64,000 bases of DNA from a virus: the IMG/VR virus record IMGVR_UViG_3300047508_000198, positions 1 through 64,000 of that record; one strand, written 5' to 3'. Below the pieces are notes generated by a model. That model saw only the letters and a list, made by a program, of their open reading frames with translations. It did no database searches and was not told where the DNA came from. How positions within the stretch are numbered: position 1 is the stretch's first letter; each line of letters starts with the position of its first letter. This document shows, piece after piece, positions 1,129 through 46,956 of the stretch. The position numbers and the translations under genes were made by a program.

Positions 1129-1306
1129 AGTGATCGAACTCCCCGTTGCGGGCGCCATCCAGGAAGCAGTCCCACTCGTTGCGAGTGAAGCGCAGCTCCT
1201 GCTCCGGGTGCTTGCTGTCCCGCATCGCGACGCCGCCGCCCTCCAGATGCGCGACCTCGACGCAATCGCCGTCGTCCCCGCTGAGGCTGCTCTTGATCCA
1301 CTCCAT
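1118..1306 (-). CDS. DUF397 domain regulatory-type protein
   Basis: About 62 aa matching the whole DUF397 pattern: EWIKSSLSG, GDCVEVA, GGGVAMRDSK, LRFTRNEWDCF, GEFD. In actinomycetes DUF397 proteins usually accompany an XRE-type regulator and act as small antagonists, so a phage copy suggests interference with a host developmental or conflict circuit. The start ATG at 1306 is embedded in the promoter element at 1305-1322, implying a leaderless mRNA. An upstream in-frame ATG at 1336 is the alternative. Confidence 0.85.
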   Translation of the reverse strand: MEWIKSSLSGDDGDCVEVAHLEGGGVAMRDSKHPEQELRFTRNEWDCFLDGARNGEFDHFAG

Positions 1307-1322
1307 ATCAAGGAATATAGCC
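1305..1322 (-). promoter_or_regulatory. Leaderless promoter element of the DUF397 gene
   Basis: Read on the minus strand: hexamer TATATT, then CCTTGAT, then ATG. The same hexamer-7 nt-ATG geometry recurs at 1724, 48094 and 57198, so transcription probably starts at or next to the A of the start codon. It stands out as an AT-rich patch in very GC-rich DNA. Confidence 0.6.
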
Positions 1323-2615: not shown

Positions 2616-3485
2616 TCACGGGCTGACGAAGCTGAAGCCTCCCACCCCGTTCCCGTTCCCGGCCGCCTTGGCGGTCCCGAAATTCAGGTTCTCCTGCGCG
2701 AACAGGTAGAGCGGCCGGCCGTGGTAAGTGACCTGGACGCCGAGCGGGGTACTGGTCAGCCCGACCTGCCCCGGGCGGGCGCCGCCGGTCACGCCCGGCC
2801 AGCTGGCGGTCAGCACGTACGGCCAGGCCCGCGCGCAGGCGCCCGTGCAGGGGCCGGAGGCGGTGTAGACCGGGAACTTGACCCAGCCCAGGAACGTGAA
2901 CATCAGCACGGCCAGGTGCCGGTGCCCGCCGATCCGGACGGTGGTCAAGGTGGCGACCCAGGGCAGCTGCCTGCCATCAGGCCGGACCAGGTTCCATACC
3001 CCGTGCGGCAGCGGGCTGGCCGGGTCGTCGAAGCCCTCACCGGTGACCTGGTTAGGCGCGTCGTCGAACATGTACAGCGGGCGCCCGGCGTAGGTGACCT
3101 GGGTGCCGACGCCCGTCCGGTGCACGGTGCCGAGCAGGTTCTGGTGCACGCCCCGCCCGGCGACGGGCGCCCCGGTGGTGGTGATGGCCGGCCAGACCGC
3201 GGTCTTGTCGTTGGACGGGCCGGTGCAGGACAGCGACATGCCGCCCAGGTGCAGGACCGTGGTCGTGCAGCCGAACGACGACGGCGAGTTGTCCGAGGTG
3301 ATGGTGTAGAGCGAGAAGCCCTTGTACTTGCCGTTGCCGACCACCAGGGCCGGGCCGAACGGGGTGCTGGCAAGGGAGATCTTGGTGCCGGTGCCGACAG
3401 AGGCCTGGGCCGCTCCCGTGCCCAGGGCGAGCAGGCCCGATACGGCCAGGGCCGCGCTCAGAGCCAATCCGATGAATCTGCGCAT
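2616..3485 (-). CDS. Secreted protein with PF03640-type repeats
   Basis: 289 aa with a clear signal peptide at residues 1-28 (FIGLALSAALAVSGLLALGTGAAQA). Two copies of the 'secreted repeat of unknown function' (Lipoprotein_15) pattern follow: TYAGRPLYMF and TYHGRPLYLFAQE, plus CTGACARAWPY. This family belongs to actinomycete envelopes, so this looks like host-derived cargo (a moron) that could alter the lysogen or infected-cell surface. It has its own promoter (3543-3562), AAGGAGG ribosome site and terminator, which fits independent expression. Confidence 0.75.
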   Translation of the reverse strand: MRRFIGLALSAALAVSGLLALGTGAAQASVGTGTKISLASTPFGPALVVGNGKYKGFSLYTITSDNSPSSFGCTTTVLHLGGMSLSCTGPSNDKTAVWPAITTTGAPVAGRGVHQNLLGTVHRTGVGTQVTYAGRPLYMFDDAPNQVTGEGFDDPASPLPHGVWNLVRPDGRQLPWVATLTTVRIGGHRHLAVLMFTFLGWVKFPVYTASGPCTGACARAWPYVLTASWPGVTGGARPGQVGLTSTPLGVQVTYHGRPLYLFAQENLNFGTAKAAGNGNGVGGFSFVSP

Positions 3486-3542: not shown

Positions 3543-3562
3543 ATATCAAGGAAGATAGCACG
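3543..3562 (-). promoter_or_regulatory. Promoter of the secreted-protein gene
   Basis: Minus strand CGTGCTATCTTCCTTGATAT, identical in its core to 1724-1742. Here no ATG follows directly. About 55 nt of leader with an AAGGAGG site precede the start at 3485. Confidence 0.55.
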
Positions 3563-4034: not shown

Positions 4035-4844
4035 CTACTTCACGGCAGCTGCGGTGTGCAGGTTCTGCCAGGTGACCGGGCCGACCTGCCCGTCTACCTG
4101 CAGCCGGTGTCGGCCCTGGTACTCCCGCACCGCAGCGGCCGAGGCGGGCCCGTAGATCCCGTCGGCGGCCAGTGAGTTGACCCAGGCCTCGCCCATCGTG
4201 GTGCGCCGGTAGTTCAGCCGGGCCTGCACCGCCTTGACGTCGGCACCGCGGACGAACGGGGAGGTCAGCGTGATGATCCGGCCCGGCCAGGCGGGGCCGC
4301 CCGGCTTGGCGGCCGGAGCGGCCGGAGCGGCCCCGGTCCCGGTGTACGGCACGTCGTAAAAGCCGTAGACGTAGCCCTGGTCGTTGCGGCGGTCCTTCTC
4401 CACCACCATCCCGCCGTCAGACTGCGACCCGGAGGAGGTGGCGGCCGTGTTGCCTTCCAGGGCCCGGAAGCGCTTGGGGTCGGCCGGGTCCACCCAGCTG
4501 ACCCAGCCGACGTGATCGAAGCGGTCGGCGTTGCCGGGGAAGTCGTACACCACGATGTAACCGCGCTTGGCCTCCGGCTTGAACCGGCCCTGCTTCTTGG
4601 CGTGGGCCATGACATCGCCGCAGTAGGCGAAGCCCTTCGGGGTGCGGATGCCCTCCAGCGGGCTGACGTCGCCCTGGGCACGGAACGCGGTGTAGAACCC
4701 CCACGAGATGAAGATCGCGCACCAGGGCACGGCCTGCATGCCGTACCAGGCCCCGAACTCGGTGCGGTTGGACCCGGCCGGGGACTCCTTCACCCCGAGC
4801 TTGGACTTGAAGACCGCCTCGACCTGAGCGATAGACGTAGCCAT
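4035..4844 (-). CDS. Endolysin: CHAP amidase/peptidase with peptidoglycan-binding domain
   Basis: 269 aa. Residues about 10-165 form a CHAP-type cysteine peptidase/amidase. The Cys lies in VPWCAIFISWGFY, the His in FDHVGWVSW, and the fold ends with GFYDVPY. A Pro/Ala linker leads to a PG_binding_1 domain at about 190-265 (VKAVQARLNYR, ADGIYGPASAAAVREYQGRHRLQVDGQVGPVTW). It cleaves the host wall at lysis. It starts inside the stop of the capsid gene (TGATG), an unusual late-gene coupling of lysin to capsid. No signal peptide, so a separate holin is needed. Confidence 0.9.
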   Translation of the reverse strand: MATSIAQVEAVFKSKLGVKESPAGSNRTEFGAWYGMQAVPWCAIFISWGFYTAFRAQGDVSPLEGIRTPKGFAYCGDVMAHAKKQGRFKPEAKRGYIVVYDFPGNADRFDHVGWVSWVDPADPKRFRALEGNTAATSSGSQSDGGMVVEKDRRNDQGYVYGFYDVPYTGTGAAPAAPAAKPGGPAWPGRIITLTSPFVRGADVKAVQARLNYRRTTMGEAWVNSLAADGIYGPASAAAVREYQGRHRLQVDGQVGPVTWQNLHTAAAVK

Positions 4845-5863
4845 CAGGACTTGGTGATGGTCGCGATGCCCCTCGGGTTGAGGATCGACATGGCCACCAT
4901 CTCGTCGAAGACCCAGCCCTTCCAGAACGCCTCGACCATGTGGTTCTCCTCGACGTCCAGGCTGTAGAGCACCGGGAACACGCCGAGGAAGTTGGGCTCG
5001 GGGGTGAGGAAGATCTTGGCCTGCGGCACGATGATCGAGCGCTGGATCTGGAACTCGCCGAAGCTGGTGATGGTCTCGCCCGCGACGATCCGGTCCTTGA
5101 ACGCCCAGCCCGTCTGGTTGATGTCCCAGCGGTACATGTCGCGGAAGTCGAACGGGTTGATCATCAGCCGGGCGCTGGGCAGCTCGTGCAGGTCGGTCAT
5201 CGCGACCGCGCTGTAGAGCGAGCCCGGGGTGAGGTAGCCCGAGGCCTCGGTGATGTTGTGGTTCGGGGTGACCACGTGGTCCGGCCGGGTCGCGTAGTCC
5301 GTCACGGCCGCCTGCAGGATGACGAGCAGCCGCGCGTCCTCCTGCTTCAGGATGGCCTGCTTGGTCTCGTCCTGGGCCTGCTCGACCGCGTTGATCCGGA
5401 GGTAGAACAGGTCCTCCTTGCGGATCGCGGGGCGGGAGGCGATCCGGAAGAACCGCACCGGGATGCGCTTGCCCTCGAAGGGAGTCACGCGGACTTCGCC
5501 CTCAGTGCCGCTCAGGATGTAGGCCTGGCCGAGGTCGTCCCAGACGTCGTATTCAACGGGTGTGCCAGGAGTAACCGGGTCCTCGACCAGGACGTTGCGG
5601 GTGATGCCCTGATAGCGCAGCTTCAGCTGGATCGGGCCGACCATGCCCACGCCGAGGCGGCGGAAGCCGTGCAGCTCATCGGAGAGGATGAGCGCCATCT
5701 TGCGGACCTTGGCCTCGCGGGTGAGCGGCGCGGAGCGCGCCCGCCGGGCCTCAATCTGCGCTACGTAGTCGTCGCTCTTGCGCGAGGCGACGCGGGGCCG
5801 CAGGCCGCCGAGCGGCGCTGCCGGGGCCAGCTGGCCTGGGGCCACGGTGGCAAGCTCGGTCAT
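4844..5863 (-). CDS. Major capsid protein
   Basis: 339 aa. Sequence and context fit an HK97-fold major capsid subunit of the type seen in large actinophages: a helical, basic N-arm (residues 28-60), beta-rich E-loop-like region, YATRPDHVVTPN, and a conserved end VFDEMVAMSILNPRGIATI. It lies downstream of the protease and two small virion proteins and upstream of the endolysin. GGAAAGGA ribosome site before ATG 5863. The call rests on pattern and position, not a database search. Confidence 0.75.
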   Translation of the reverse strand: MTELATVAPGQLAPAAPLGGLRPRVASRKSDDYVAQIEARRARSAPLTREAKVRKMALILSDELHGFRRLGVGMVGPIQLKLRYQGITRNVLVEDPVTPGTPVEYDVWDDLGQAYILSGTEGEVRVTPFEGKRIPVRFFRIASRPAIRKEDLFYLRINAVEQAQDETKQAILKQEDARLLVILQAAVTDYATRPDHVVTPNHNITEASGYLTPGSLYSAVAMTDLHELPSARLMINPFDFRDMYRWDINQTGWAFKDRIVAGETITSFGEFQIQRSIIVPQAKIFLTPEPNFLGVFPVLYSLDVEENHMVEAFWKGWVFDEMVAMSILNPRGIATITKS

Positions 5864-6673: not shown

Positions 6674-7015
6674 TCAGGGAGTCACGACGTCCGAGGCGAA
6701 CAGCGCGGCCTTCGCGGCCGGGCTGATCGTGGAGTACTGGGCGTCGGACAGCACCACCACGGCGCTGGGGCCGTAGCGCAGCCCGTTGGGCAGCACGACA
6801 TCCTTGACGGTGCTCTTCAGCGTGATGGTGCGGGACACGTTCCCTCCTCCTGCGGTGTGCACCCCGGGGGCGGTGAGCAGCGTCGAGATGGCACGCGGGG
6901 TCAGCTGGCCGTACTCGTCATCGGTCAGCGTGACCACGGCCCCGGCCTGGTACCGGCTGCCGTTCGGCAGGCAGACATCCCGCTTCCCGGCGGCGATCGT
7001 CACTGCGTACGTCAT
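6674..7015 (-). CDS. Small protein with an internal duplication
   Basis: 113 aa made of two similar halves. Residues about 5-45 (KRDVCLPNGSRYQAGAVVTLTDDEYGQLTPRA) match about 66-105 (VKDVVLPNGLRYGPSAVVVLSDAQYSTISPAA). Such short beta-rich duplicated proteins occur as head-fibre or decoration subunits. It lies just upstream of the capsid genes. An AAGGA ribosome site precedes ATG 7015, and the same bases form the promoter-like element on the other strand. Confidence 0.6.
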   Translation of the reverse strand: MTYAVTIAAGKRDVCLPNGSRYQAGAVVTLTDDEYGQLTPRAISTLLTAPGVHTAGGGNVSRTITLKSTVKDVVLPNGLRYGPSAVVVLSDAQYSTISPAAKAALFASDVVTP

Positions 7016-7033
7016 GTGCTATCTTCCTTAGTC
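7016..7033 (+). promoter_or_regulatory. Promoter firing into island 1
   Basis: Plus strand GTGCTATCTTCCTTAGTC shares GTGCTATCTTCCTT exactly with the elements at 1724 and 3543. Its direction is rightward, away from the minus-strand gene at 7015 and into the gene-free GGC island. Transcription would begin near 7034. On the opposite strand the same bases supply a ribosome site, so a double function is possible. Confidence 0.5.
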
Positions 7034-7036
7034 AGA

Positions 7037-7858
7037 GTCATGGCCCGGCACGGCATGGCTCGCCTTTGGTGGCTCGGCGGTCACGGCAGCGCCCAGCGCG
7101 GATTGCATAGCGTGGCTTGGCCCGGCGAGGCAGTCAGGGACAGGCAGGGTCAGGCGAGGACGGGCCTGGCGGAGCACAGCGAGGCAAGGCAGTCCAGGCC
7201 CGGCTTGGGACGGAAAGGCTAGGCGTGGCTCGGCAAGGCCTGGCGCAGCCCGGCCCGGCTCGGCAGTCATGGCGAGGAATTGGCACGGCACGGCTAGGCG
7301 TGGCGTGGCAAGGCGTGGCCAGGCAGTCAGTGCTCGGCTGCTCTGGGCGTAGCTCGGAATGGCGACGCACAGCGGGGCTGTCAGGGAAGGGCGCGGCTCG
7401 GCAAAGGGGGCATAGCTCGGCGGCACATGGCCGTCGCGGTATTGCGTGGACGGCGAGGCGGCGCTGGGCGAGGCAGTCGCAGCATGTCCTGGACCGCGGG
7501 GCGGTGCGGCGCGCGGCTTGGCGGCGCGGCGCACGGCCTGGCACGGCAGTCGTGTCAAGGCCGGGCGGGTCACGGCAAGCCATGGCGAGGCCGGCTCGGC
7601 GAGGCCCGGCAAGGCCTGCGAGGGCGAGGCGCGGCCTGGCACGGCCGTCGAGGATTGGCTGGGTGCAGCTCGTCTCAGCACGGCATGGCGCGGGATGGCT
7701 TGGCAGTCAGCGCTGGGCATCGGCACGGGCAGCGTGGTCAGGCTGTCATCACGCGGCGTGGCTTGGCGAGGCGGGTCGGGTCTTGGCGAGGACCGGCATG
7801 GCTCGGCAGTCGTCGCAAGGCAAGGCTGCTCATGGCATGGCCTGGCCGGGCAGGCACA
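7037..7858 (+). repeat. Non-coding GGC island 1
   Basis: About 0.82 kb with no credible gene. On the plus strand it is a run of degenerate 5-nt steps GGCNN (for example GGCAC-GGCTA-GGCGT-GGCGT-GGCAA). These are punctuated by GGCAGTC near 7132, 7185, 7262, 7323, 7472, 7546, 7704 and 7808. Long open frames exist on both strands only because stops are rare in this composition; their products are Arg/Ala/Gly/Ser word salad. The island is bounded by a promoter (7016) and a hairpin (7859). It has the same architecture as islands 2 and 3. Confidence 0.8.
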
Positions 7859-7892
7859 GGAGGCGGTCTCCATCGGGGGCACCGCCTCCTTT
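7859..7892. terminator. Hairpin at the right end of island 1
   Basis: Perfect 9-bp arms GGAGGCGGT (7859-7867) and ACCGCCTCC (7881-7889), then TTT on the plus strand. It could end both the rightward island transcript and the leftward protease transcript, whose stop is at 7904. Confidence 0.6.
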
Positions 7893-7903: not shown

Positions 7904-10900
7904 CTAGTCGAACAGGTCCCCGTCGTCATCCGGGCCGCCCAGCCCGGCCGTCATCGCCATCACCGGGGCGGGCTCGCCGGAGAAGCTCGGGGCCGCCCGC
8001 GAGGCGGTCCTGGGCGCCATGGTCCGCGGGTACCGGGGCTGCGCCTGGCTGACCGCGGCGGCCTTGGTCACCTGGCCCAGCGTGCCGATCTCGCGCTCGA
8101 TGTCGTGCAGGCTCAGGGACGCGTCCCGCTCGATCATCGTGGCCAGCTCCAGCTCATCGCCGCGGACCAGGCCCGCGGTGACCCGCAGCTTGGCCAGCCG
8201 GATGGCGGCGAAGGTCCGGGCGCCGCGCTCGTCCTCGGGGGACTGCGGGCCGCTGAGCTGCTGCCGGGCCGCGATCGTCCACGGGAACGCCGTGCCGTCA
8301 TTGCCCGCGCCGCCGATGCCGGGGCCCTGCGCGGCCAGCGGGTTCGGGTTGACCCGCACGTCGGTCTCGATCCGGCGCTGCTCGATCGGCACGCCGCCGT
8401 CCTGGGACGGGTTGGTGCCCTGGACCGGCGCGGTGACGTCCTGCAGGTTGGTGGCCGGAGCGGTCGGGATCTCCACCCCGGGGGTGAGCGCCGTGGTGGT
8501 CGCCTCGGCCGGCACGGCGGTCATCGAGCCGGGCGTGGCGCCGGGACGGGCCGGGTCGTCCTCGGTGTGCCCGGGGCCGCGGGCCAGGCCGTTACCGCTG
8601 CCGGTGGGGGCGCCGCTGGCCAGGGCCTCCTCGGTCGTCTGGCTCGGCGGGGCCTGCGGCGGGTCGTCCACCGGCTGGGCCGGGTTGGCCAGGTCGGCCT
8701 GGCGCAGGATCTGGTCCAGCTCCTCGGTGACGCCCGCCAGCGAGGCGATGAAGCTGAGCCCGGCCGAGAGCTTCGCGTTCTCACGGCGCAGCTCGTCGAT
8801 AACGCGCTGCTGCGCGGTCACGGCCGCCGTCGCGGCAGTGCGCTGCTTGGTCATCTTCTTGCCTCCGGGGCGCTCGTCCTCGTCCTGATCCTTCCCGGGG
8901 GAGCCGCCGAAGCCGGGCTCTTCCTCCTCGGCCTCCTGCATCTCCTGGCCGCCCTCGGCGCCCTGCTCTTCGAGCTGCTCGCCCTCGGCCTGCTCCTCGG
9001 CGCCTTCCTCTTCCAGCTCCTCGCCTTCGAGCTGCGCCTCCTCGGGGTCCTCCTCGCCCGGCTCGGCCAGCTCCTCCTCGTCGCCCGTGGGCTCCAGCAT
9101 CCCCTGGCCGGGGGCGGTGGCATCGGGCTGCACGCCGGGCACCCCGTCGGGGGCGATCTGGTCCGGGTGGAACAGCTGCTCGTCGGCGTCCTCGCCGGAG
9201 CCAATCGGCTCCTGGGGGTTCATGCCGGGCTCGGCGCCGGGGATCAGCTGCTCCTCATCGGCCGGGCCCTCCGGGTACGGCGAGGTCTCCTTGCCCTCCT
9301 CCAGCTCCTGGCGCATCATCTTGGCGTGCTCGATGTCCGGGTCGCGGAAGATGTCCGGCGGCGCGACGAAGCCGCACACCGGGCAGCGCTGGCCCTTGAA
9401 GACGTCCTGGTCCCCGCACACCGGGCAGGCCTCCGGCCGCAGCGTGTCCACCGACGGCGGGACCCGCAGCGGCGGGTCCGCAGCGGTGTGCTGGAGCGAG
9501 GCGTGCATGGTCTGGCCTTCCATCTCGGGGTGGTACTTGCGGACGTGCTCTTCCCAGCGCTTCTGGTCGTTGATGCCCTTCTGGACCCGGCCGCCGCCGC
9601 CGAAGGCGTTCTTGACCGATGAGTCCTCGGCGTCGTTGACCCGGATCTGCCGCAGCCAGGTGGTCGCCTGCATGCGCTCGGGGGTGACCTTCTGGCCGGT
9701 CTCGGCGGAGACCTCATCCGCGGCGTCGAAGTACTTCTGCGCGATGTGGTTGTAGTAGTGCTGCTTGTCGATGGGGGCGCTGACGGCCTCCTTGTCGGTC
9801 AGCCGCTTGCCGGCCGCCACGCTCATCGCGTGCCGGTCGATGACGACCTGGCGGTTACCGGACTCGGTGTCCTCGTCGGTGTTGCCGCCGTGCTCGATCA
9901 GGTGGGCGAATGCCCGCGTCTTCGGCCCGTTCAGGACCTGGGAGTGGTGCTCGCCGGCCAGGATGCGCCGGGCCGGGTTGGTGTGCATGTCCATGATCGG
10001 GCCGTCGCCCGTGCTGTGGTTCAGGGCCCGGCCCTCGTGGAACGAGCGCGCAGCGTGGAACATGTTGGCCGGCCACTTGGTCCGCGGCGAATAGGCCGAC
10101 AGCAGCCCGGCACCCATCGCCGCGTCGCCGCCCGCGATGCCCTTGGCCACCAGGTGCGCGTCCGGGTACCAGTTCTTGCCCTGGGTCTTCTCGTCGTCGG
10201 TGGAGTCGTACCAGGCGGCCTTGATGTTGTCCTTGCTCACCGGGTTGGCCTGGAACCACGGGTGATCGGCCGCGTCCTTGTAGCGCGGGCCGGCCGCCTC
10301 GCGCCGGGTCAGCTCGCCGGGCAGCAGCGCGGTCTTCTGCTTGGCGAACTTCCCGGTCGCGATCAGCATGGAGTTCTGGCCCCGCGTCTCGGTGGTCATC
10401 GCGTGCCTCGCAGGTCCGCTGAACATCCGGGAGTGCGCCAGCCAGGCGGCCTCCTCGCCGTGCCGGTCGAAGGACCGGCCGGTAGCGGCGTGGCCGAAGG
10501 CGTCGTGCACGGCCCGGAACTTGTCGTTGGTCTCGTCGTCGAAGAACGTGTGCGGGCCGGTGGCGCGGGTGGACAGCACGGCCAGGTGCCGGTTCCTGGC
10601 CAGGTCCTGGGTCATCTCCAGGTGGTTGGCGTACGGGTCGTGGTCGACGGCCTCGACGTGCACGCCCATCGCGCCGGTCAGGTGGTCGTACTGGTGGTGC
10701 ACCTGACGGGCCATGTCGGCGAAGGCGGCGTGCGCGCCCGGGTCGTTCATCGGCAACGCGTGGTAGGCCTGCGCGAGGCGCCGGATCCGGCCGGGGTTCG
10801 TCTCGATGTGGCTGTACTGCTCGGCGTGCGGGTCCGGCAGGCCGATCTTGGCGGCGTAGGAGCGGGCCCCCTCCTGGGCGGCGCGCACCGGGCTGACGGC

Positions 10901-13900
10901 CGGGTCGCCCGGGTGATGCAGCCGGTCCTCGATGATGTCCAGCGCCGCGGTGCGCCCGTGACCCAGCCACCGGCCGCAGGCCACGTGGTGGCAGCCGGAC
11001 TGGCTGTACAGGTTGTCGGCGTCGGCCGCCTCCTGGCTCCAGCCGGCCGCCGCGGTGACCTCGATCCAGGGCGCGGTGCCGACGTGGACGCGGGCGCCCT
11101 GGCGGCGCTGCTTCCAGCGCTGGATCCGCTCGTTGCCGCCGTTGGTCCAGTGCTGGCTCTCCACGTGCTGGCGCATCCCCTGCGGGTCGTCGTGCCAGGC
11201 CTTCAGGTGCTTGCCCAGCTCGATGTCATCGAAGTGCTCCGGCACCCGGTCCTGGTCATCGCCGATGTGGATGGAGTCGTGCGAGAGGTCGCCGGTCGCC
11301 CGGTGGTAGACATCCATCCGCGGGCCGCCGTAGTGCTTGACGTACCAGCCCGAGCCCTTGCCGTTCGCCAGCGCGTGCTCGCGCTCGTAGTAGGGCGCGC
11401 CGCCCTCCTCGTCGGAGTCGAACTTGATGTGGCCCCGGCCGCCCGCGTACCGGCCCATCAGCTCCGAGCCCCGCCGGGTGTTCTCCTCGGACTGGCGGCT
11501 CTCCTCGGTGCCGCCCGGGTCCAGGACCTCCGCGCCGCCGCTCCAGATCTTGTCGGCCAGGGACCGGCCGAGGTCCTTGGACTGCTGGCGCCGGTCGATG
11601 TAGTCACGGGACCGCTCGGCCCGCAGCTGGGTCTCGTGCCCGCGCCAGCTCGGCCCCGGGGCGTGCCGCCCGGCGTTGTCGACGACATGGAAGTGGCCGG
11701 TCTCCGGGTGCTTGACCACCTCGTACGGGCCGTGCCACTCGTCCTCCGGGCTGTAGCCCTCCGGCTTGTGCACCCGGGCGTCCGGCCGGGCGACCCGCTC
11801 GGTGTCCTGCGGGTCGATGCGCGAGTGCGGGAAGGCAGGCGTGCGCTCCCTCGCCAGGTCAGTGAACCGCGGTTCCTCTTCGGTCCCGATCCGGTGCGCG
11901 TCCGGGCCCGCAGACTCCAGGTGATGCCACAGCTTGTAAGCCTGGTCCTCCCCGTAGGACCCGTCGTGCTCGGGGTTGCCGAAGTGGCCGTGCATCGGGT
12001 TGGCATCACGGCCGCTGGCGTCAACCACGTGGACCTGGCGGGTCTGCGGGTGCCGGATGACGTGGTAGGGCCCGTGGTAGCTCAGGCCGCGGTACCAGCT
12101 GTGCGGCTCCCGGGTCATCATGTTGTGCTCCAGCTCGGGCCCCACCGGGCTGCGGCCCGGCTGCGGCTCGGCCCAGACCTGGTGGCCCTCGGGGGCCTCG
12201 GCCCCGGTGATGGCCTGGCGGCGGACGCCGTGGCGCTCGCGCCAGCGCTCCTCCTCCGCGTCGTCTTCGTCCTTCAGGAACTGGTAGTGCGGGTGGTCCG
12301 GCCAGTGCTCGGTGTTGCCGCATTCCTCGGCGTGGCAGTACAGCGGGCGCACGTGCTCGCCCACCTGCATCGGGTGCGCCGAGCGCCAGGAGTTCTTCTC
12401 GGTGTCGGCGTACTCCAGGTCGGGCTCGACCGGGCCTGAGGGATGAACCCGGTAGACCCGCGACGGGTAGGCCTGATCCTCGTTCTCGCCAGGCCCCTGC
12501 CGCTGCTCGCGGCCCAGGTCGTGCGCCCGCCGGCTGGCCCCCGAGGAGTCCGCGCGCTCGCCCCAGCGGTGCGCCTCGGCCGGGTCGGTGGTGGCGTGCA
12601 CGTACGGGGCGGCGTGGATGTCGAAGTTGTTCGGGTCCTCCGCGGCCTGCTCGTGCGTCAGCATCTCGCCGGGGCGCAGGACCGAGCGGGTGCCATGGTA
12701 GAGCGGCTGACCCGTGCCGAAGTGGTGCTTACCGGAGTAGTCGGTGTCGGAGAAGCTGCGCCGCCGCGGGGCGCGCGGCGCCCGCGGGGCGAACGGGTTG
12801 CGGTGGCTGCACTGCTCGGAGATATGCGGCAGCTCCTTGCGGTCCTCGCCGAAGTAGCCCCACTCCATCAGCGAGTTGCCGGCGCTGCGGACGTGCTTGG
12901 CCGGGACCACCGTGCTCCAGATGTGCGCCCGGTCAGGGTGGTTGGGGCCCTTCCAGTTCCGCTCGCTGGTGTTGTTGACCGACCGGGCTTCCTGCTCGGC
13001 GTAGGACCGGTTCAGCGTCACCCAGTCACCGTGGTTGATCTCGCCCTTCTTGGCGTTGCGGCTCTCCGGGTTCTGCGCCGGGGCGGCCCGGTAGATGCGG
13101 ACCTTCTTCTCCGGGTTGCCGCGGGCCCGGCGGATGTCGTTCAGGTGCTTGTAGCCATGCTCCCCGCCGGAGTCGTCGTACTCGTGGATCCGCTCGTAGA
13201 TGTCCTTGGGCCAGTCCCCGCTGCCCATGTCGTGCAGCGGGTCGCCCTCCTCCATCGGCTGCATCTCCATCTGGTAGTCAGCCGGGTTGCCCGCCTCGTG
13301 CACGGACGCGAAGTGCTCCAGCAGGCCGAGCGGCGTAAAGGCGGGTTCACGCCGGGCCGCGGTCACCTGGTGCAGGTAGGGCTTGTCGAGCACGTGCGCC
13401 GTCGGGTCGGCCGGGTCCTCCACCAGGAAGCTGTTCTCGAAGAACGTCAGCCCGGCGCAGATCTCGTGGATGAGGCTCTCACGGACCTTGCCGTCGGCGC
13501 CGCGCTTGCGGAACTTCATGCCCTTCTTGCCGGGCATGTGCTGGCAGTACTCGGCCGGGCTGGTGGCCTTGTTGCCGCACGCCGAGCAGGTCGAGTACTC
13601 GCAGTCCACGCCCATCGAGGTGCGGTTGACCCGGCCCTCCAGGATGGCCTTCGCGAGCTTGGGGAAGCGCTGGGCGTCGATCTCGTGCAGCAGCTCGACC
13701 CAGGTGTCCGGGCTGCCGTCCGGGTTGCGGTCGTGGTGCATCGCCGCGGCGACGATGACGCCCCGGGCCCGGCGGTGGTTGGCGTTGTGGTGGTTGATGA
13801 AGGCCGGCTTGCCGAGGAAGGTCTTGTAGCCCTTCTCGATCTCCTCGGCCGGGAACGTGTCCCAGTTGTCGTTCGTCCGGCTGCTGATCGCCCTAGCCCG

Positions 13901-14035
13901 GACGTACAGGTACCCGGGCCGCGGGGTGTAGGCGAAGGAAACACGGTGCGCCGCTTTCCTCAACGCCCGCGCAGAGTTTCCCGCCGGTACGCGCCAGGCA
14001 TCGAGCACCTGCGCATTCGCGAACTTGCGAATCAC
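7904..14035 (-). CDS. Giant prohead protease / polyvalent protein with scaffold-like tail
   Basis: 2043 aa, several times longer than a normal prohead protease. Residues 30-215 look like the maturation protease, with candidate His82/83 (FINHHN) and Ser140 (VNRTSMGV) plus a CEYSTCSACG/YCQH zinc cluster. Residues 311-398 are an ART-like module (IYRAAP, WVTLNRSYA, EWGYFG). About 440-565 is a second, Arr-like ART (PLYHGTRSVLRPGE, YRVHPSGPVEPD). Two copies of GPYxVxxHPxT...HVVDxxGR follow. About 1130-1500 holds VHDAFGHAATGRSFDRHGEEAAW and GLLSAYSPRTKWPANM modules typical of polyvalent proteins. The end has a CPVCG/CPVCG ribbon, a long Glu-rich stretch and a coiled coil, resembling a scaffold. GTG start at 14035 with GGGAGGT. 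The precursor is probably cut during head assembly. Confidence 0.7.
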   Translation of the reverse strand: MIRKFANAQVLDAWRVPAGNSARALRKAAHRVSFAYTPRPGYLYVRARAISSRTNDNWDTFPAEEIEKGYKTFLGKPAFINHHNANHRRARGVIVAAAMHHDRNPDGSPDTWVELLHEIDAQRFPKLAKAILEGRVNRTSMGVDCEYSTCSACGNKATSPAEYCQHMPGKKGMKFRKRGADGKVRESLIHEICAGLTFFENSFLVEDPADPTAHVLDKPYLHQVTAARREPAFTPLGLLEHFASVHEAGNPADYQMEMQPMEEGDPLHDMGSGDWPKDIYERIHEYDDSGGEHGYKHLNDIRRARGNPEKKVRIYRAAPAQNPESRNAKKGEINHGDWVTLNRSYAEQEARSVNNTSERNWKGPNHPDRAHIWSTVVPAKHVRSAGNSLMEWGYFGEDRKELPHISEQCSHRNPFAPRAPRAPRRRSFSDTDYSGKHHFGTGQPLYHGTRSVLRPGEMLTHEQAAEDPNNFDIHAAPYVHATTDPAEAHRWGERADSSGASRRAHDLGREQRQGPGENEDQAYPSRVYRVHPSGPVEPDLEYADTEKNSWRSAHPMQVGEHVRPLYCHAEECGNTEHWPDHPHYQFLKDEDDAEEERWRERHGVRRQAITGAEAPEGHQVWAEPQPGRSPVGPELEHNMMTREPHSWYRGLSYHGPYHVIRHPQTRQVHVVDASGRDANPMHGHFGNPEHDGSYGEDQAYKLWHHLESAGPDAHRIGTEEEPRFTDLARERTPAFPHSRIDPQDTERVARPDARVHKPEGYSPEDEWHGPYEVVKHPETGHFHVVDNAGRHAPGPSWRGHETQLRAERSRDYIDRRQQSKDLGRSLADKIWSGGAEVLDPGGTEESRQSEENTRRGSELMGRYAGGRGHIKFDSDEEGGAPYYEREHALANGKGSGWYVKHYGGPRMDVYHRATGDLSHDSIHIGDDQDRVPEHFDDIELGKHLKAWHDDPQGMRQHVESQHWTNGGNERIQRWKQRRQGARVHVGTAPWIEVTAAAGWSQEAADADNLYSQSGCHHVACGRWLGHGRTAALDIIEDRLHHPGDPAVSPVRAAQEGARSYAAKIGLPDPHAEQYSHIETNPGRIRRLAQAYHALPMNDPGAHAAFADMARQVHHQYDHLTGAMGVHVEAVDHDPYANHLEMTQDLARNRHLAVLSTRATGPHTFFDDETNDKFRAVHDAFGHAATGRSFDRHGEEAAWLAHSRMFSGPARHAMTTETRGQNSMLIATGKFAKQKTALLPGELTRREAAGPRYKDAADHPWFQANPVSKDNIKAAWYDSTDDEKTQGKNWYPDAHLVAKGIAGGDAAMGAGLLSAYSPRTKWPANMFHAARSFHEGRALNHSTGDGPIMDMHTNPARRILAGEHHSQVLNGPKTRAFAHLIEHGGNTDEDTESGNRQVVIDRHAMSVAAGKRLTDKEAVSAPIDKQHYYNHIAQKYFDAADEVSAETGQKVTPERMQATTWLRQIRVNDAEDSSVKNAFGGGGRVQKGINDQKRWEEHVRKYHPEMEGQTMHASLQHTAADPPLRVPPSVDTLRPEACPVCGDQDVFKGQRCPVCGFVAPPDIFRDPDIEHAKMMRQELEEGKETSPYPEGPADEEQLIPGAEPGMNPQEPIGSGEDADEQLFHPDQIAPDGVPGVQPDATAPGQGMLEPTGDEEELAEPGEEDPEEAQLEGEELEEEGAEEQAEGEQLEEQGAEGGQEMQEAEEEEPGFGGSPGKDQDEDERPGGKKMTKQRTAATAAVTAQQRVIDELRRENAKLSAGLSFIASLAGVTEELDQILRQADLANPAQPVDDPPQAPPSQTTEEALASGAPTGSGNGLARGPGHTEDDPARPGATPGSMTAVPAEATTTALTPGVEIPTAPATNLQDVTAPVQGTNPSQDGGVPIEQRRIETDVRVNPNPLAAQGPGIGGAGNDGTAFPWTIAARQQLSGPQSPEDERGARTFAAIRLAKLRVTAGLVRGDELELATMIERDASLSLHDIEREIGTLGQVTKAAAVSQAQPRYPRTMAPRTASRAAPSFSGEPAPVMAMTAGLGGPDDDGDLFD
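13330..13354. repeat. 25-bp exact repeat, copy A
   Basis: Identical over 25 bp to 33729-33753, although the two lie in unrelated genes on opposite strands. The core has GGCGT...ACGCC dyad arms around AAAGGCGGGTTC. A 12-bp part, GGCGTAAAGGCG, also occurs in the palindrome at 52186-52203. Confidence 0.7.
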
Positions 14036-27371: not shown

Positions 27372-27409
27372 GGCACGGCGCGGTCGCCGGGTGACGGCCG
27401 CGCCATGCC
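27372..27409. terminator. Hairpin between microproteins and island 2
   Basis: Arms GGCACGGCGCGG (27372-27383) and CCGCGCCATGCC (27398-27409), one mismatch, 14-nt loop. It could end the rightward microprotein transcript and the leftward transcript of island 2. Confidence 0.5.
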
Positions 27410-28957
27410 GGGCCCTGCCTTGCCGATCCGAGCTGCGCCCTGACACTCCTAGCCCTGCGTGGACTGCCGAGCTGCGCCGTGCCCTGCCTTAAACGGCCCA
27501 GCCGCGCCATAACTGCCGAGCCGAGCCGAGCACGGACTAGCCAAGATAACCGAGCCGCGACGGCCGGGCCATGCCAAGCTGTGCCCAGTCAAGCCACGCG
27601 ATGACTGCCGAGCCATAACGCGCCCAGTCGAACCACGCCATGCGATGACTGCCTTGCTGTCCCGAGCTGATCCTTGACCAGCCGAGCGACGACGGCCTGG
27701 CCATCCCTGCCGAGCCTGGCCGGGCCTGGCCCTGAAGATCCGTGCCAAGCCGCGACGGCCACGCCCAGCCTCGCCAAGATCAGCCGCGCCCCGACTGCCA
27801 AGCACAGCCGCGCCGAACTGCGCTGTCCAAGTGAAGCACTGCCCTGCCTATCCGGCCATGCCGCGCGATGCCTTGCCTTGCTACCCGCGCTATCCGCGCC
27901 GCGCCTATCCAGCCAGGACCGGCGGCGCCATGCTACGCGATGCCTCACGACAGCACGCGATACCGCGCCAGCCATGCCATGCCGCGCCTCGCTATGCCGC
28001 CCGTGCGCTCCCAGGCCTAGCCATGACGGCCTGGCCATATCTGGCCATGCCACGCCTTGACCAGCCACGCACTGAACAGCCGTGCGCTAACTGCCTCGCC
28101 GCGCCGCGCCAAGACCGACCAGGCCTTGCCAAGCCGGGCCTTAACGGCCTCGCCATGCCCTGCCGTGCCTCGCCAAGCGATGCCTAGGCTGCCGTGCCGA
28201 GACGAGCCTGTCCCTGACGAGCCCGGCCTCACCTTGGCGGCCAAGCCAAGCCATGCCCAGCCTCGCCAAGCCTCGCGAGCCTGACCCCGCCCTATGCTGC
28301 CCTGGCGAACCCAGCCTGGACTGCCACGCCGTACCCAGCCGAGTCGCGCAGAGCCTTGCACCTCCTGCCACACCTGGCCGAGCGGCCCTCGCTGTCCCAG
28401 CCGGGCAACGCCTCGCCATGCGCCGACAGCCTTGCCGAGCCGAGCCGCACTCAGCGCAGCCCTGCCAACCCGATCCTGGCCCTGACGGCCGAGCCCAGCT
28501 GTGCCAAGCCGTGACTCGCCTCGCCAAACCCGGGGGCGCCATGCCATGACGGCCCTGCCGAGTTGCGCAATGCCGAGCGATCTGTGCCGCCCAAGCCAAC
28601 CATGCCTTCCGGCCTTGCCCAGCGCTCCATGCCGTACCCTCCATGACGGCCTTGCTGCGCACAGCCAGTCCATGCCAAGCCCCGCATCGCCTCGCCATGA
28701 CTGCGTTGCCCCGCCCGACCTGGACTGGACAGGCCTCGACTGCCTCGCCCGGCCTCGCCTAGCCTGGCCTTGACCCGCCATGCCTTGCGTCAACGGCCTT
28801 ACCCCGCCGGGACGGGCTCCGCTCCGCCTGGATCAGCCCCGCCTTGCCTCGACTGCCTCGCCTGGCCCGGCCTCGCCAAGCCGTCCTTGCCGGGCCTTGA
28901 CTGCCACGCCTTGCCATGCCGATCCGGAACGCGCCCAGCCTACGAAGCCGAGCCTTG
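27410..28957 (-). repeat. Non-coding GGC island 2
   Basis: About 1.55 kb without a credible gene. On the minus strand it is degenerate GGCNN 5-nt steps with GGCAGTC punctuation (GACTGCC on the plus strand). It has a promoter-like element at its GGC-sense 5' end (28958-28980) and a hairpin at its 3' end (27372-27409), mirroring island 1. Long frames on both strands give biased Ala/Arg/Gly/Ser/Trp strings without protein character. Confidence 0.8.
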
Positions 28958-28980
28958 GCTATCTAAGTTTATAGCACATC
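28958..28980 (-). promoter_or_regulatory. Promoter firing into island 2
   Basis: Minus strand GATGTGCTATAAACTTAGAT then AG: hexamer TATAAA, 7-nt spacer CTTAGAT. This is the same geometry as TATCTT-CCTTGAT-ATG elsewhere. It overlaps the last codons and stop of the portal gene and points leftward into the gene-free island. Confidence 0.5.
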
Positions 28981-42293: not shown

Positions 42294-43403
42294 CTACAGC
42301 ACGGCCAGCTCTGCTGCCTCGCCGAGCATCCCGGCCCCGGCAGCAGCCCCGCCGCCGGCGCCGGGAATCTTGTTGATCAGGGCCTTGCCCAGGCCGTACT
42401 CGCCCAGGCCCATGCCGTGGCCGCCGTCCCCGCCGCTGTCGCCGGGACTGGCGTTAGTGCCCGCGCTGGGCGCCCAGGGCTCGTCGCTTATCACGCTGCT
42501 GGCCATGTCGGCCTGGCGCAGGTAGGAGCCGACCACGCGGCGCGCCACCCGGCGGCACTCCGACGGCGCCAGGTACGGGTTGGAGGCCTGCACCGTGGCA
42601 GCGACCGCCTCGACCTGACGGCGCACCGGGTCCTTGCGCGCGGCCGTGACGGCCTGGTCGGGCGTCGTGTCGTACCCGGCCGTGCCGGTGCCGCCCTGCA
42701 GCCCGGTGCCCGCTGACGTCGCCTGGGTGCCCGACTGCAGGCCGCCGGGCTTCATGCCGTCCGGGGTCGAGGTCGCGCCGCCCACGCCCGCGGGCAGGCC
42801 CGCGCTCATCGGCGCACCGGAAGGCGGCGAGCCCGAGGTCACGTCCGCGGTCGCGCGCATGCACAGGCAGGCGCCCGGCTTGTCCTTGCAGCTCTTGCAC
42901 CGGCCGCTCTTCTTGGTGAGCCTGCTGCCGCACCGGCACAGGCCCGCGGTGGCGCCCATCTCCGGCGCCGGGATCTCGGGAGCCTGCGGGGTGACCACCT
43001 GGGGCGCCGGGCCGCCAGGAGCGCCCTGGGGGATCTCGGCGTAGCCGTGGCTGTAGTCCGGGCCCTCGTCGTGCTCGTAGCCCTCAGCGGGCCCTGAGCC
43101 GAAGCTCTGGCCGGCCTGCAGCACCGGGGCCACCGGGTCGACACCCTCGGGCAGCGCCTCCTTCAGCAGGGCGTAGCGGCGCCGGGCGGTCTCTTCCAGC
43201 TCCTCGGCGGGCAGGCCGCACGCGGCGGCTACCCGCTCGATCCGCTCGGCCGCAAAGGCCAGCCGGTGCTCCAGCTCGCGAGCCGAGCGGGACTGGAACA
43301 GGAACGCGTAGACCGGCAGCATCTCGGCGTCGGCCCGGTCCAGGCTTGCCTCGCGCGCCTCCAGGTCGTGATCGGCGCTCGCCTCGTGCCACAAATCCGA
43401 CAT
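42294..43403 (-). CDS. Cysteine-rich virion-type protein, 369 aa
   Basis: Helical N-terminal 110 residues (DADAEMLPVYAFLFQSRSARELEHRLAFAAERIERV pattern), a Pro-rich linker, then a treble-Cys segment (LCRCGSRLTKKSGRCKSCKDKPGACLC). After that come Gly-rich and helical parts (NPYLAPSECRRVARRVVGSYL). ATG 43403 directly follows the leader hairpin. Probably a minor head protein; unassigned. Confidence 0.5.
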   Translation of the reverse strand: MSDLWHEASADHDLEAREASLDRADAEMLPVYAFLFQSRSARELEHRLAFAAERIERVAAACGLPAEELEETARRRYALLKEALPEGVDPVAPVLQAGQSFGSGPAEGYEHDEGPDYSHGYAEIPQGAPGGPAPQVVTPQAPEIPAPEMGATAGLCRCGSRLTKKSGRCKSCKDKPGACLCMRATADVTSGSPPSGAPMSAGLPAGVGGATSTPDGMKPGGLQSGTQATSAGTGLQGGTGTAGYDTTPDQAVTAARKDPVRRQVEAVAATVQASNPYLAPSECRRVARRVVGSYLRQADMASSVISDEPWAPSAGTNASPGDSGGDGGHGMGLGEYGLGKALINKIPGAGGGAAAGAGMLGEAAELAVL

Positions 43404-43447
43404 GCTCTGCCTCCCTGGGCGTCCTACTTCTTCCCAGGGGGCAGAGC
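43404..43447. promoter_or_regulatory. Long leader hairpin at the island 3 / 43403 gene border
   Basis: GCTCTGCC-TCCCTGGG pairs with CCCAGGG-GGCAGAGC (15 bp plus one bulge). It lies immediately before the ATG at 43403 and contains the CCCTGGGAAGAAG late-leader box. It could terminate the leftward island transcript or control translation. Confidence 0.5.
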
Positions 43448-45505
43448 CATGCCTGCCGCGCCATGCACTGCCGATCTATGCCGAGAGCCGCCATACGATG
43501 CCGAGACGGCCACGCCATGCCGAGCCTTGCCGGTCCTTGCGAGGCCGCGCCGTGCGATGACTGCCACGCCTCACCCAGCCCCGCTTCGCCTCTCCAGGCA
43601 AGGGATGCCATGCGGCGACTGCCGGGCCTGGCCGGGCCGTGCCATACCGAGCGATGACTGCCGGGCCTGGCCTAGCCATGCTGCGCCCTGCCTGGACTGG
43701 ACAGGCCACGCCGAGACTGCCATGCAACGCCGGGCCCAGCTGCGACTAGCCGGGCCTAGACAGGACTGCCAGGCCAAGCCCACCGTTGCCACGCCACGCG
43801 TGTCCGGCCTGGCCATGCCGAGCCGTACCCTGACACGCCTAGCCAACCGAGCCCTGCCGTGCCTCGACTGCCCAGCCCGGCCTTGCCCAGACGTCAATGC
43901 CAAACCTAGCCAGGCGGGCCGTAGCCTGCCGAGCAAAGCTGTGCTGCGCCTACGCTAGCCGAGCCGAGCCCTGCCTAGACCGCCCGGCCAGGCCACGCCG
44001 TGCCCAGCACTGGCTAGCCGTGCCCGGACAAGCCGCGACCGTCCATGCCCCGACTGCCTCGCCGAGTCATGCCTCACCCGGCCGCGCCCTGCGCTGACTG
44101 CCCCGCAACGCCTATCCCAGCCATCCCGCGCCGCGACGGCCTCGCTGAGACGAGCCTCGCTATGCCGCGCCCTGCGCTAACTGCCTCACCTCGATTTGAC
44201 GCGCCTGGCCCCGCCGAGCCACGCCGTCCCTTGACTGCCAGGCCACGCCGTACCCTGACTAGCCCAGACGGGCCTCGCCTTGCCTCGACTGCCGTGCCAC
44301 GCCCCGCCTAGCAAAGCACACGATGCCCCGCGATGCGCCGACTGCCCTGCCTTCCGTGCCGGGCCGAGCATCCCGGGCCCAGCCATTCCGAGCCCCGCGT
44401 TGCGACGACTGCCCGGCTAAGCCAGGCCTTGCAACGCCGGTCCTTGCCAGGCCTCTCCCGGCCTGGCCCAGACTGCCTTGCCGAGCCAGGCCCCGCCGAG
44501 CTGCGCCTACCCTGGCCTAGCCAATCCAGCCATGCCGAGCCGAGCCGCGCCAAGCCAAGATTGGCCTAGCCCTGACTGCCGGGCCAAGCCACGCGACGAC
44601 ATACTGCGCCCTGACCTGACTGCCTGGCTGAGCCGTACCGAGCCAGGCCGGACCATGCCTCGACTGCCGAGCCACGCCATGACCTGGCTGCCGATCCTCG
44701 CCTGGACGCGCTGCGCCGTAGGTAGCCCGGCCTGTCCATGGCAGCCGAACCGGGCTGTGCCGCGCCTAGCCACTCGGTGCCCCGCGCCGCCTCGACTGCC
44801 GCGCCTAGCCACGCCTTGCCTAATCACCCATGCCGCGCCGCGCCACGACGGCCGGACCATACTGCGCCGTCCATGCTGGGCAACACCGGGCTGTGCCGCA
44901 CGATGCCCTGACTGCCTGGCCGAGCCGTGAAGCCCCTGCTTCGCCTTGACGGCCGAGACCGGCCGAGCCATGCACTGACTACAACGCCGCGCCTTGACTG
45001 CTGTGCCAAGCCTTGCCCTGCCCGGACAAGCCACCCGATGCCTTGACTGCCTCACCACACCTTGCCTCGCCCAGCCTTCCCAGACCGCGCCTTGACTGCC
45101 GTGCCGGGCGACGCTATCCAAGCCATGCCCTGCTCAGCCAACCCAGGCCGAGCCTTGACGGCCTCGCCCCGCTGTACGAACAGCACCATGCGCCGACGGC
45201 CACGCCGAGCCGGGCTGCTCCGGGCCAAGCAACGACCAGCCCTGAGCTGCCAAGACTGCCCTGCCTAGCCGCGCAAAGCCACTCCTTGCCCCGCCTCGCC
45301 GCGAGACACCACGCGACGCCGAGACTGCCGCGCTAAGCCAAACCACGCCCGTCCCAGCGGTCGATGCTTCGCCATGCCTTGACGGCCCTGCACTGCCGCA
45401 CCCCGACCAGCCCAGACTGGCCTCGCCCAGGCTGGCCGGGCCTGGACTGCCTGGCCGCGCCAGGCCGCGCCGTGACGCAACCAGCCACGTCACGGCCCGG
45501 CCTGA
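43448..45505 (-). repeat. Non-coding GGC island 3
   Basis: About 2.06 kb without a credible gene. It has the same make-up as islands 1 and 2, with GGC on the minus strand. GACTGCC marks on the plus strand recur near 44233, 44287, 44340, 44407, 44471, 44574, 44618 and 44662, that is every 44-67 nt, with one gap of twice that. No AT-rich promoter was found at its 5' (right) end; it may be read through from the 45510 gene. Confidence 0.8.
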
Positions 45506-45509
45506 CGGC

Positions 45510-45986
45510 TTAGGCCTCGTCGCCAACGGCGAGAGGGCCGTCATCTTCCTCGACATCCATGGTCCGGCGGACCATGGCGATGAACTCGCTGAACATGCGG
45601 TAGCGGCGCTGCATGTTCCGCCAGTCCACTTCCATCTGGCGCCGCACCTGGGCGGTCAGCACCTCATCCCGCTGGATCTCGTCCAGCGGCACGTACGAGC
45701 GCCCCGGCACGCCAGCGGCGTGCACCGAGTGGAACACCCGGATGGACTGCACCTCACTGCGCTTGTCGATGTACTGCTCGCGCACCACGCGAACCAGCTG
45801 CCGGGCCTGCTGCAGCCGGTACTTGCGCGCGGCGACATCGTTGTTCCACTCGAACCGGCTGTGCAGCGGGTGACCCTCGGCGGCGGCGGCCGAGACAATG
45901 GCCGCCGCCGTCAGGATGCCGCCGTTCTCCTCGCGGATCTGCAGCAGCTCGGTTTCGAGCTGGCTAGGAGCCTGATCCGGCGCCAT
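45510..45986 (-). CDS. Conserved phage protein, 158 aa
   Basis: LETELLQIREENGGILTAAAIVSAAAAEGHPLHSRFEWNNDVAARKYRLQQARQLVRVV matches a pattern common in actinophages and other phages (GILTPxxVVxxAxxxxHPLHxxFEWdd..A...R..QAR.LI). It is usually near replication or recombination genes; function not established. Overlaps the 45964 gene. Confidence 0.7.
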   Translation of the reverse strand: MAPDQAPSQLETELLQIREENGGILTAAAIVSAAAAEGHPLHSRFEWNNDVAARKYRLQQARQLVRVVREQYIDKRSEVQSIRVFHSVHAAGVPGRSYVPLDEIQRDEVLTAQVRRQMEVDWRNMQRRYRMFSEFIAMVRRTMDVEEDDGPLAVGDEA

Positions 45987-46956
45987 CGCCGGCCTCAGCA
46001 GCCATCGCAGCGCGGTCCTCCGCGGTCAGGCCGCGGTCGGGACCGGGCTCCTTGTCCTTGACCGGCTTGGCCTCGGGCTCGGGCTCGGGCTCCTCGGCCA
46101 GGACCTCCGGCGGGGCGTCCAGCTCGGCGAAGTCGTCCATCGTCAGATGGTCTTCCTCGCCGTAGACGTCGTAGTCCACCGAGTCCAGCAGGTACATCGG
46201 GTCCAGCTCGCGGACCACGGTGACGGCGTTGCGGCCGTCGGCGATCCGGAACGTGCCGAATTCCCCGTTCCGCTCGGGCCGCCACTCGCCGACGCCGACA
46301 TTGCCGCCGCCCGCCTCGATCAGCGAGACCACCGAGTCCCGCTCCAGCAGGTTGGAGGTGTAGCCCACCATCAAGGTGGCGCTCCACCGGTAGAAGCAGC
46401 CGCGGTACCGCAGGTCCGCGGGGTGGTTGACGCCGGCCAGGCGCACGTAGTCCTCGCGCATCCGGGGGCGGCCGTCGAGCACGACCATCCGGCCGGCCTC
46501 GCTCGGCACGCTGACGCCGTAGAACGTCAGGAACTGGCGAAGCTCGGTCATCTTCACCTGCTTGCCCCAGAACCGCCCGGCCCCGATAGTCGCCATCTTG
46601 AAGGCCATGGCGGGCAGGCCGAACAGCACCTCCTCGGTCGCCGGGTCGACGCCCGCACGGTAGAGGCTGGCCAGGTACTCGCGGTGCGGGTCACGCTTCT
46701 CCGGCTGGCGCTTCTTGCCCTGCTGGGCGGCCAGCATCTGGGCCTTGGCCTTCTCGGAGAACCGGCTGACGATCAGCGGCGCGGTGCCGATGATCCGGAT
46801 GGCGAGCAGCTCCTGCCGGATCGGCTTGATGGTCAGCGCCGCGGCCGGAGCCGGGGCAGATGCCGTCGTGCGCCGCTTGACGGCTGGCTTGGCGTCGGCT
46901 CCGTTCGTACCGGTGGCGGTAGCCGCCGGGTCATCCTTAACCTGTGTTCCAGGCAT
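45964..46956 (-). CDS. Conserved phage protein with a Gly-rich GxGEWRPER loop
   Basis: 330 aa. IRIIGTAPLIVSRFSEKAKAQM, LPAMAFKMATIGAG, RYRGCFYRWSATLMVGY, VVSLIEAGGGNVGVGEWRPERNGEFGTFRI. The layout recalls a widespread phage family, and the glycine-rich loop faintly resembles RAMP/Cas5-type proteins, which I offer only as a lead. The acidic C-tail is low complexity. A TTGACA/TATAGT promoter lies upstream. Confidence 0.6.
   Translation of the reverse strand: MPGTQVKDDPAATATGTNGADAKPAVKRRTTASAPAPAAALTIKPIRQELLAIRIIGTAPLIVSRFSEKAKAQMLAAQQGKKRQPEKRDPHREYLASLYRAGVDPATEEVLFGLPAMAFKMATIGAGRFWGKQVKMTELRQFLTFYGVSVPSEAGRMVVLDGRPRMREDYVRLAGVNHPADLRYRGCFYRWSATLMVGYTSNLLERDSVVSLIEAGGGNVGVGEWRPERNGEFGTFRIADGRNAVTVVRELDPMYLLDSVDYDVYGEEDHLTMDDFAELDAPPEVLAEEPEPEPEAKPVKDKEPGPDRGLTAEDRAAMAAEAGDGAGSGS

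What the first reader, a model, noticed from the sequence alone, without database searches (positions are those of the whole stretch)
7016..7892. Island 1 has a promoter and a terminator: a possible 0.83-kb non-coding RNA
A promoter sharing GTGCTATCTTCCTT with two gene promoters (1724, 3543) points rightward from 7016, against the flanking minus-strand genes. A perfect 9-bp hairpin followed by TTT closes the island at 7859-7892. The unit is thus an independent transcript reading GGC-sense. Being antisense to the late transcript through this gap, it might also regulate capsid expression.
Basis: partly seen in the sequence, partly recalled or inferred. Interest (0 to 1): 0.78.

Follow-up and report, generated by a model that had tools for sequence, protein, structure and literature searches.

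The report
Phage guide-RNA array with own promoter
The 0.83-kb "island" is most likely a bank of guide RNAs of the recently described phage system VIPR, set apart from its protein genes and turned around, with its own probable promoter and terminator, so that this phage can aim one small CRISPR-like protein at many rival or host DNA targets.

Summary
In detail: GTGCTATCTTCCTT at 7016 recurs at two minus-strand promoter-like sites, and a perfect 9-bp hairpin plus TTT, the only one in the window, closes the island at 7859-7892. A non-coding RNA is likely, but its nature was missed. Island 1 is one of three arrays of NNGGC pentamers (NN random, GGC kept). Searching by array alone led to 44 other phage contig stretches whose arrays mostly lie beside the same two genes, PHROG 4652 and 15946. 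PHROG 4652 is Vipr, the RAMP protein of VIPR (PMC13142463, 2026). Here vipr is at 45964-46956, the accessory gene at 45510-45986, and island 3 is the linked array. Islands 1 and 2 are distal arrays kept at the same loci in relatives. Elsewhere GGC sense follows the upstream gene (48 of 51); island 1 is inverted and so needs its own promoter, and an ortholog keeps a -10 there. Decoded by the 1-nt-skip rule, one conserved guide reads as a DEAH-box motif (near-matches in two HsdR genes), but no full target was found. Antisense control of capsid genes is unsupported. Known kind; the distal, inverted, self-promoted array is a new variant.

The parts
7016..7033 (+). promoter-like site, extended -10 TGCTATCTT (TATCTT at 7020-7025), expected start near 7032-7034
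   Evidence: 14-mer shared with 1729 and 3548; family motif GCTATNTTCCTTGATAT 3 exact copies vs 0.02 expected; ortholog L011 has CATGCTAGAATCCTTGATAT at the same place. Inferred, not measured.
7016..7029 (-). Shine-Dalgarno and spacer of the divergent gene 6674-7015 (AAGGAAG-ATAGCAC-ATG), overlapping the promoter
   Evidence: sequence; ortholog keeps AAGGA 7 nt before ATG
7034..7860 (+). island 1: distal VIPR vrRNA array of NNGGC pentamers, punctuated by GGC-N-GTC
   Evidence: orthologous array in L011/L012
7192..7265 (+). guide unit, 14 NN: CA CC TT AC AA TA GT TC AA CT GC CC CC TC; one NN differs in L011
7647..7705 (+). guide unit, 11 NN: GA TT TG GC TC TC AC AT GC AT TT; antisense decode is a DEAH-box motif; one NN differs in L011
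7859..7892 (+). 9-bp hairpin plus TTT, probable (possibly two-way) terminator
   Evidence: hairpin identical in L011 but the U run is UUC there
6674..7015 (-). 113-aa gene flanking island 1, opposite strand (PHROG 16771, weak match)
7904..14035 (-). 2043-aa gene flanking island 1 (DUF7178 domain)
4844..5863 (-). major head protein; the late operon that island 1 faces
   Evidence: PHROG 2522, E 2e-97
27397..28954 (-). island 2: distal vrRNA array after the portal gene (28969-31140); starts GTGCTATAAACTTAG
   Evidence: same place in relatives L026/G008
43509..45471 (-). island 3: vrRNA array linked to vipr and the accessory gene
45510..45986 (-). accessory gene of the locus (PHROG 15946), candidate vap
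   Evidence: AlphaFold model without a PDB match
45964..46956 (-). vipr gene (PHROG 4652, Cas7/Csm3-like RAMP)

Best explanation
Island 1 is a distal guide-RNA (vrRNA) array of a VIPR system. A promoter at 7016 drives rightward transcription of a GGC-sense RNA ending at the hairpin at 7859-7892. The RNA is divided into roughly ten guide units punctuated by GTC. Vipr, made from 45964-46956, polymerises on the pentamers, one subunit per NNGGC, and the NN pairs read DNA as NNxNNx..., skipping every third base. The complex sits on matching genes of rival phages or the host and represses them. Shown here: the array, its grammar, its conservation, the Vipr family and fold, and the association with the two genes. 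Taken from the 2026 preprint: RNA binding, the 1-nt skip and repression. Inferred: the start and end of the transcript, one subunit per pentamer, processing into units, use of distal arrays in trans, and the targets.
For: Pentamer columns in the window's islands: NN entropy 1.98 and 1.99 bits, G/G/Y 0.93/0.77/0.85; 30 GGC(NNGGC)4 matches vs 0.01 expected. In F1 mycobacteriophages NN varies 9.4% and the core 0.26%; W vs L011 26% vs 11%, P=4e-5. Arrays alone led to the same two gene families, PHROG 4652 and 15946. Conversely, of 60 loci found by Vipr protein 57 have PHROG 15946 and 43 have a sense array within 1.5 kb. The PHROG 4652 profile hits the solved SUSP1 Vipr (PDB 36pp, E 1e-10); SUSP1 Vipr is itself PHROG 4652 (E 1e-96). 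The modelled fold of the window's Vipr matches Csm3/Cas7 (prob 1.00). VIPR definition. Promoter.
Against: The window's cores are degenerate (about 85% per base) and only 39 of 82 GTC-to-GTC units in its three islands have the exact 5n+4 length. No complete guide-target match was found in 1.7 Mb of phage DNA, IMG/VR (exact patterns for three guides) or 396 actinobacterial genomes (one guide). The promoter lacks a good -35 and overlaps a ribosome-binding site. The U run is short and not conserved. No conserved 3' tail like that of SUSP1 was seen. No RNA data exist.
Confidence: 0.9

Rival explanations
1. Island 1 is a vrRNA array but has no promoter of its own. The 14-mer is only the ribosome-binding site of gene 6674-7015, and the hairpin only ends the late minus-strand transcript. 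The array is then silent, or expressed by read-through.
For: AAGGAAG is spaced 7 nt from ATG in the window and AAGGA 7 nt in L011; the hairpin lies just past the 7904 stop; the scanner finds no sigma-70 promoter or intrinsic terminator.
Against: The same motif directly precedes ATG in the other reading sense at 1305 and 1724; L011 keeps TAnnnT and the whole CCTTGATAT; island 2 starts with a related GCTATAAACTT, kept in G008.
Confidence: 0.25
2. A long antisense RNA that regulates the capsid operon.
For: It faces the late minus-strand genes, the major head protein gene among them.
Against: Arrays of this kind lie co-directional with their neighbours in most phages; NN positions are hypervariable while GGC is kept, which no antisense constraint explains; guides from the window have no above-noise match in the window.
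Confidence: 0.04
3. A DNA-level or neutral degenerate pentanucleotide repeat without guide function.
For: Arrays reshuffle quickly between near-identical phages, as repeats do.
Against: Strong core-versus-NN contrast, fixed strand, fixed neighbours vipr and PHROG 15946, and a published RNA-guided function for the same grammar.
Confidence: 0.04

Closest known systems
VIPR (Viral Interference Programmable Repeat) of phage SUSP1, type II, PMC13142463
   Same: Vipr in the same PHROG (4652); GGY/NN pentamer RNAs beside vipr; a small accessory gene next to vipr; phage-borne
   Different: window cores are GGC rather than mostly GGT; units run head to tail with a GGC-N-GTC 4-nt step and no SUSP1-like tail; the accessory gene is PHROG 15946, not PHROG 5926; two more arrays lie about 17 and 38 kb from vipr, one of them inverted with its own promoter-like site
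Class 1 CRISPR-Cas backbone (Csm3/Cas7)
   Same: fold of the RNA-binding subunit (Foldseek prob 1.00)
   Different: no CRISPR repeats; NN pentamers instead of contiguous spacers
TIGR-Tas (PMC12045711)
   Same: phage-borne tandem guide-RNA arrays (abstract only)
   Different: protein found through a Cas9-derived guide-RNA domain rather than a RAMP
Cluster F1 mycobacteriophage pentamer region (Donkeykong, Quico)
   Same: (NNGGC)n blocks next to PHROG 4652 and 15946 homologs, with 4-nt steps between blocks
   Different: punctuated by GGC-N-GGC; single short array, partly annotated as a gene

Membership tests
VIPR | Vipr, a RAMP homolog | tested here: met
   PHROG 4652 shared with SUSP1 Vipr; profile hit to PDB 36pp; Csm3-like model
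VIPR | vrRNA of alternating GGY/NN with hypervariable NN | tested here: met
   column entropies and substitution contrast, pattern counts
VIPR | array in the intergenic space beside vipr | tested here: met
   island 3 directly follows vipr and the accessory gene; island 1 itself does not
VIPR | accessory vap gene | tested here: inconclusive
   PHROG 15946 is next to vipr in nearly all loci but could not be matched to vap1-6; it is not SUSP1's accessory family
VIPR | about 9-16 repeats per vrRNA | tested here: met
   in-frame units of up to 15 NN in the window, the longer ones 7-14
VIPR | structured 3' tail on each vrRNA (described for the SUSP1 clade) | tested here: inconclusive
   no repeated tail between units, only GTC; the preprint says array architecture varies between types
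VIPR | DNA recognition by the 1-nt skip rule | tested here: inconclusive
   skip-1 excess over controls is modest; several near-matches fall in codon phase; no full match
VIPR | vrRNA expressed and bound by Vipr | not testable with these tools
   needs RNA sequencing and pull-down
CRISPR-Cas | direct repeats separated by unique contiguous spacers | tested here: not met
   repeat search shows only degenerate pentamer families

The most novel reading that the evidence does not exclude
A VIPR system can carry unlinked, independently transcribed guide arrays embedded in its late genes, one of them inverted with its own promoter and terminator. These distal guides are aimed at conserved motif-II codons of helicase-type enzymes, including host type I restriction (HsdR), making VIPR also a counter-defence that silences host immunity.
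Probability: 0.18. Interest if true: 0.82.

Novelty: new variant of a known kind. Interest (0 to 1): 0.62.

Why it matters
VIPR was reported only in 2026. This phage shows that one Vipr may be served by several arrays far from its gene (about 4.3 kb of guides here), which would widen its target list and let guides be expressed at another time. It also assigns PHROG 4652 and the pentamer islands of cluster F1 mycobacteriophages, Gordonia phage UmaThurman and cyanophage Cy-LDV1 to VIPR, which makes the system testable in M. smegmatis. The arrays differ strongly between near-identical phages, so they may record recent conflicts.

Tried and rejected
Protein-coding reading: the codon-usage gene caller leaves all three islands empty, and a 5-nt period has no codon frame. 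tRNA or Rfam RNAs: none in the window. Bacterial and plasmid hits (L057-L059, pCPRO01) are chance or a simple CGGCA repeat. Literature searches by repeat terms found nothing; the PDB profile hit led to the preprint. Target hunts: 425 and then 554 guides against 1.15 and 1.73 Mb with skips 0-3, shuffled and reversed controls; the first gave no excess, the second a modest skip-1 excess partly due to loci fetched by pattern. IMG/VR exact patterns: none for the first part of the 7192 guide; one hit for its second half, in a tail-fibre-like ORF of a 29% GC phage, about what chance gives; 9 contigs for the DEAH-type core, all UvrD-like VDEAQ sites whose flanking NN do not fit. The enrichment of hydrophobic-DE-[A/F] motifs among the window's guides (5 vs 0.28) was defined after seeing them and is only suggestive.

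Full report
Observation. The window is 64,000 of 84,944 bases of an IMG/VR virus record, about 70% GC. The shared 14-mer is exact at 7016 (+), 1729 and 3548 (reading on the minus strand). The fuller motif GCTATNTTCCTTGATAT is exact at 1305, 1724 and 3543, all minus, with 0.02 expected; twice it ends in an ATG that can open a gene, as in leaderless promoters. The 7016 copy keeps TGC-TATCTT-CCTT but lost GATAT. In the ortholog L011 (80% identity in the neighbouring 2043-aa protein) the same place reads CATGCTAGAATCCTTGATAT, so a TAnnnT -10 and the whole downstream half are kept although the bases changed. The same bases, on the other strand, give a Shine-Dalgarno for the 113-aa gene in both phages; both uses may be real. 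The hairpin at 7859-7892 is the only perfect 9-bp stem followed by TTT in the window, folds far better than shuffles on both strands, and is identical in L011 apart from TTT to TTC.

What the island is. It consists of NNGGC pentamers, 54 GGC-to-GGC steps of exactly 5 in 0.83 kb. Two more islands exist, 27.4-29.0 kb and 43.5-45.5 kb, GGC on the minus strand. Blocks are punctuated by GGC-N-GTC, a 4-nt step, so that many units measure 5n+4. The islands are the large gaps left by a codon-usage gene caller. NN is nearly random (1.98 and 1.99 bits), GGY is not.

Spread. A pattern for five GGC pentamers, NGTC and two more found 44 contig stretches in IMG/VR and no convincing array in 84,980 bacterial and archaeal genomes. 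Named relatives are cluster F1 mycobacteriophages, Gordonia phage UmaThurman and cyanophage Cy-LDV1. Where the gene 5' of the island could be told, it is co-directional with GGC in 48 of 51 cases; the exceptions are window island 1, its ortholog, and one island of L015. Pairs of phages with nearly identical flanks have strongly reshuffled arrays in the same frame.

The partners. The genes next to the arrays fall into two families found without being looked for: PHROG 4652 and PHROG 15946, unknown in Pfam and PADLOC. In most contigs the order is PHROG 4652, (array), PHROG 15946, array. Starting from the PHROG 4652 protein alone, 57 of 60 loci carry PHROG 15946 and 43 carry a sense array within 1.5 kb. 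A profile of PHROG 4652 members hits one PDB chain convincingly, 36pp, "SUSP1 Vipr protein", E 1.2e-10. SUSP1's Vipr gene is PHROG 4652 (E 1.4e-96), and its locus carries GGT/NN repeats. The AlphaFold model of the window's protein (45964-46956) matches Csm3/Cas7 chains with probability 1.00; TM-scores are modest because of long tails.

Known system. PMC13142463 describes VIPR: a phage RAMP, Vipr, with vrRNAs of 9-16 YNNGG repeats whose NN pairs read double-stranded DNA with a 1-nt skip, repressing competing phages. The window's locus fits: vipr 45964-46956, accessory gene 45510-45986, linked array island 3. The accessory family differs from SUSP1's.

What is particular here. Islands 1 and 2 lie about 38 and 17 kb from vipr, among structural genes (major head protein 4844-5863, portal 28969-31140). 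They are not accidents: island 1 is kept at the same place and in the same inverted orientation in L011 and L012, and island 2 after the portal in L026 and G008, where a GCTATAAACTT start is also kept. G008 carries a Vipr 68% identical to the window's. Because island 1 is inverted relative to both neighbours, read-through from them would give the wrong strand; a promoter at 7016 solves this. The preprint's main text describes arrays flanking vipr; its supplement could not be read here, so distal arrays may already be noted there.

Targets. Units were decoded by the 1-nt skip. The unit at 7647-7705, conserved with one NN change in L011, reads antisense as [NK][IM]A[IM]V[DE][DE]A[HQ][NK]S. Three of 396 Actinomycetota genomes match it with two mismatches (none with the reversed pattern); two are HsdR, NIIAMVDEAHRSQ. 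Other units decode to LDEAHHL-like and VDEFQ-like motifs, and one IMG/VR match of the former is a DinG-like helicase, named by eye. These readings are suggestive only: no unit has a complete match, the motif test was post hoc, and random expectation for the exact patterns is of order one. In the 1.7-Mb set one array (L135) matches the vipr gene of other phages at 16 of 16 bases in codon phase, about 0.5 expected by chance, in line with the preprint's report of guides against other VIPR systems.

Verdict.

Noticed in passing
window 1305-1321, 1724-1740, 3543-3559 (minus): three exact copies of GCTATNTTCCTTGATAT, two of them ending in the ATG of a gene: a leaderless-type phage promoter family
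   Followed up: partly
window 43404-43450 (minus strand): a long hairpin (GGCTCTGCC...GGCAGAGC) ends island 3 and runs into the ATG of the next gene (42294-43403)
   Followed up: no
window island 3 (minus), units at offsets 892, 1331 and 1414: three 44-nt guide units share the first three NN (AG AG GC) and then diverge, as if tracking variants of one target
   Followed up: no
L012:7310-7795: L012 departs from L011 just before the end of the major head protein gene and continues with an ORF that looks like a homing endonuclease (FEGEGCI motif); recognised by eye only
   Followed up: no
L002 (Donkeykong), locus coordinates 2895-3281: gp48 of this F1 mycobacteriophage (and the like genes of others) is annotated on top of the pentamer array and is probably not a gene
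   Followed up: partly
L015 (G005), four islands, two on each strand: a contig whose major head protein is 99% identical to the window's carries four pentamer islands, but no vipr was found in the stretch first fetched
   Followed up: partly
L173-L179: a group of Vipr-bearing phages with vipr and PHROG 15946 but hardly any GGY/NN array within 1.5 kb
   Followed up: no
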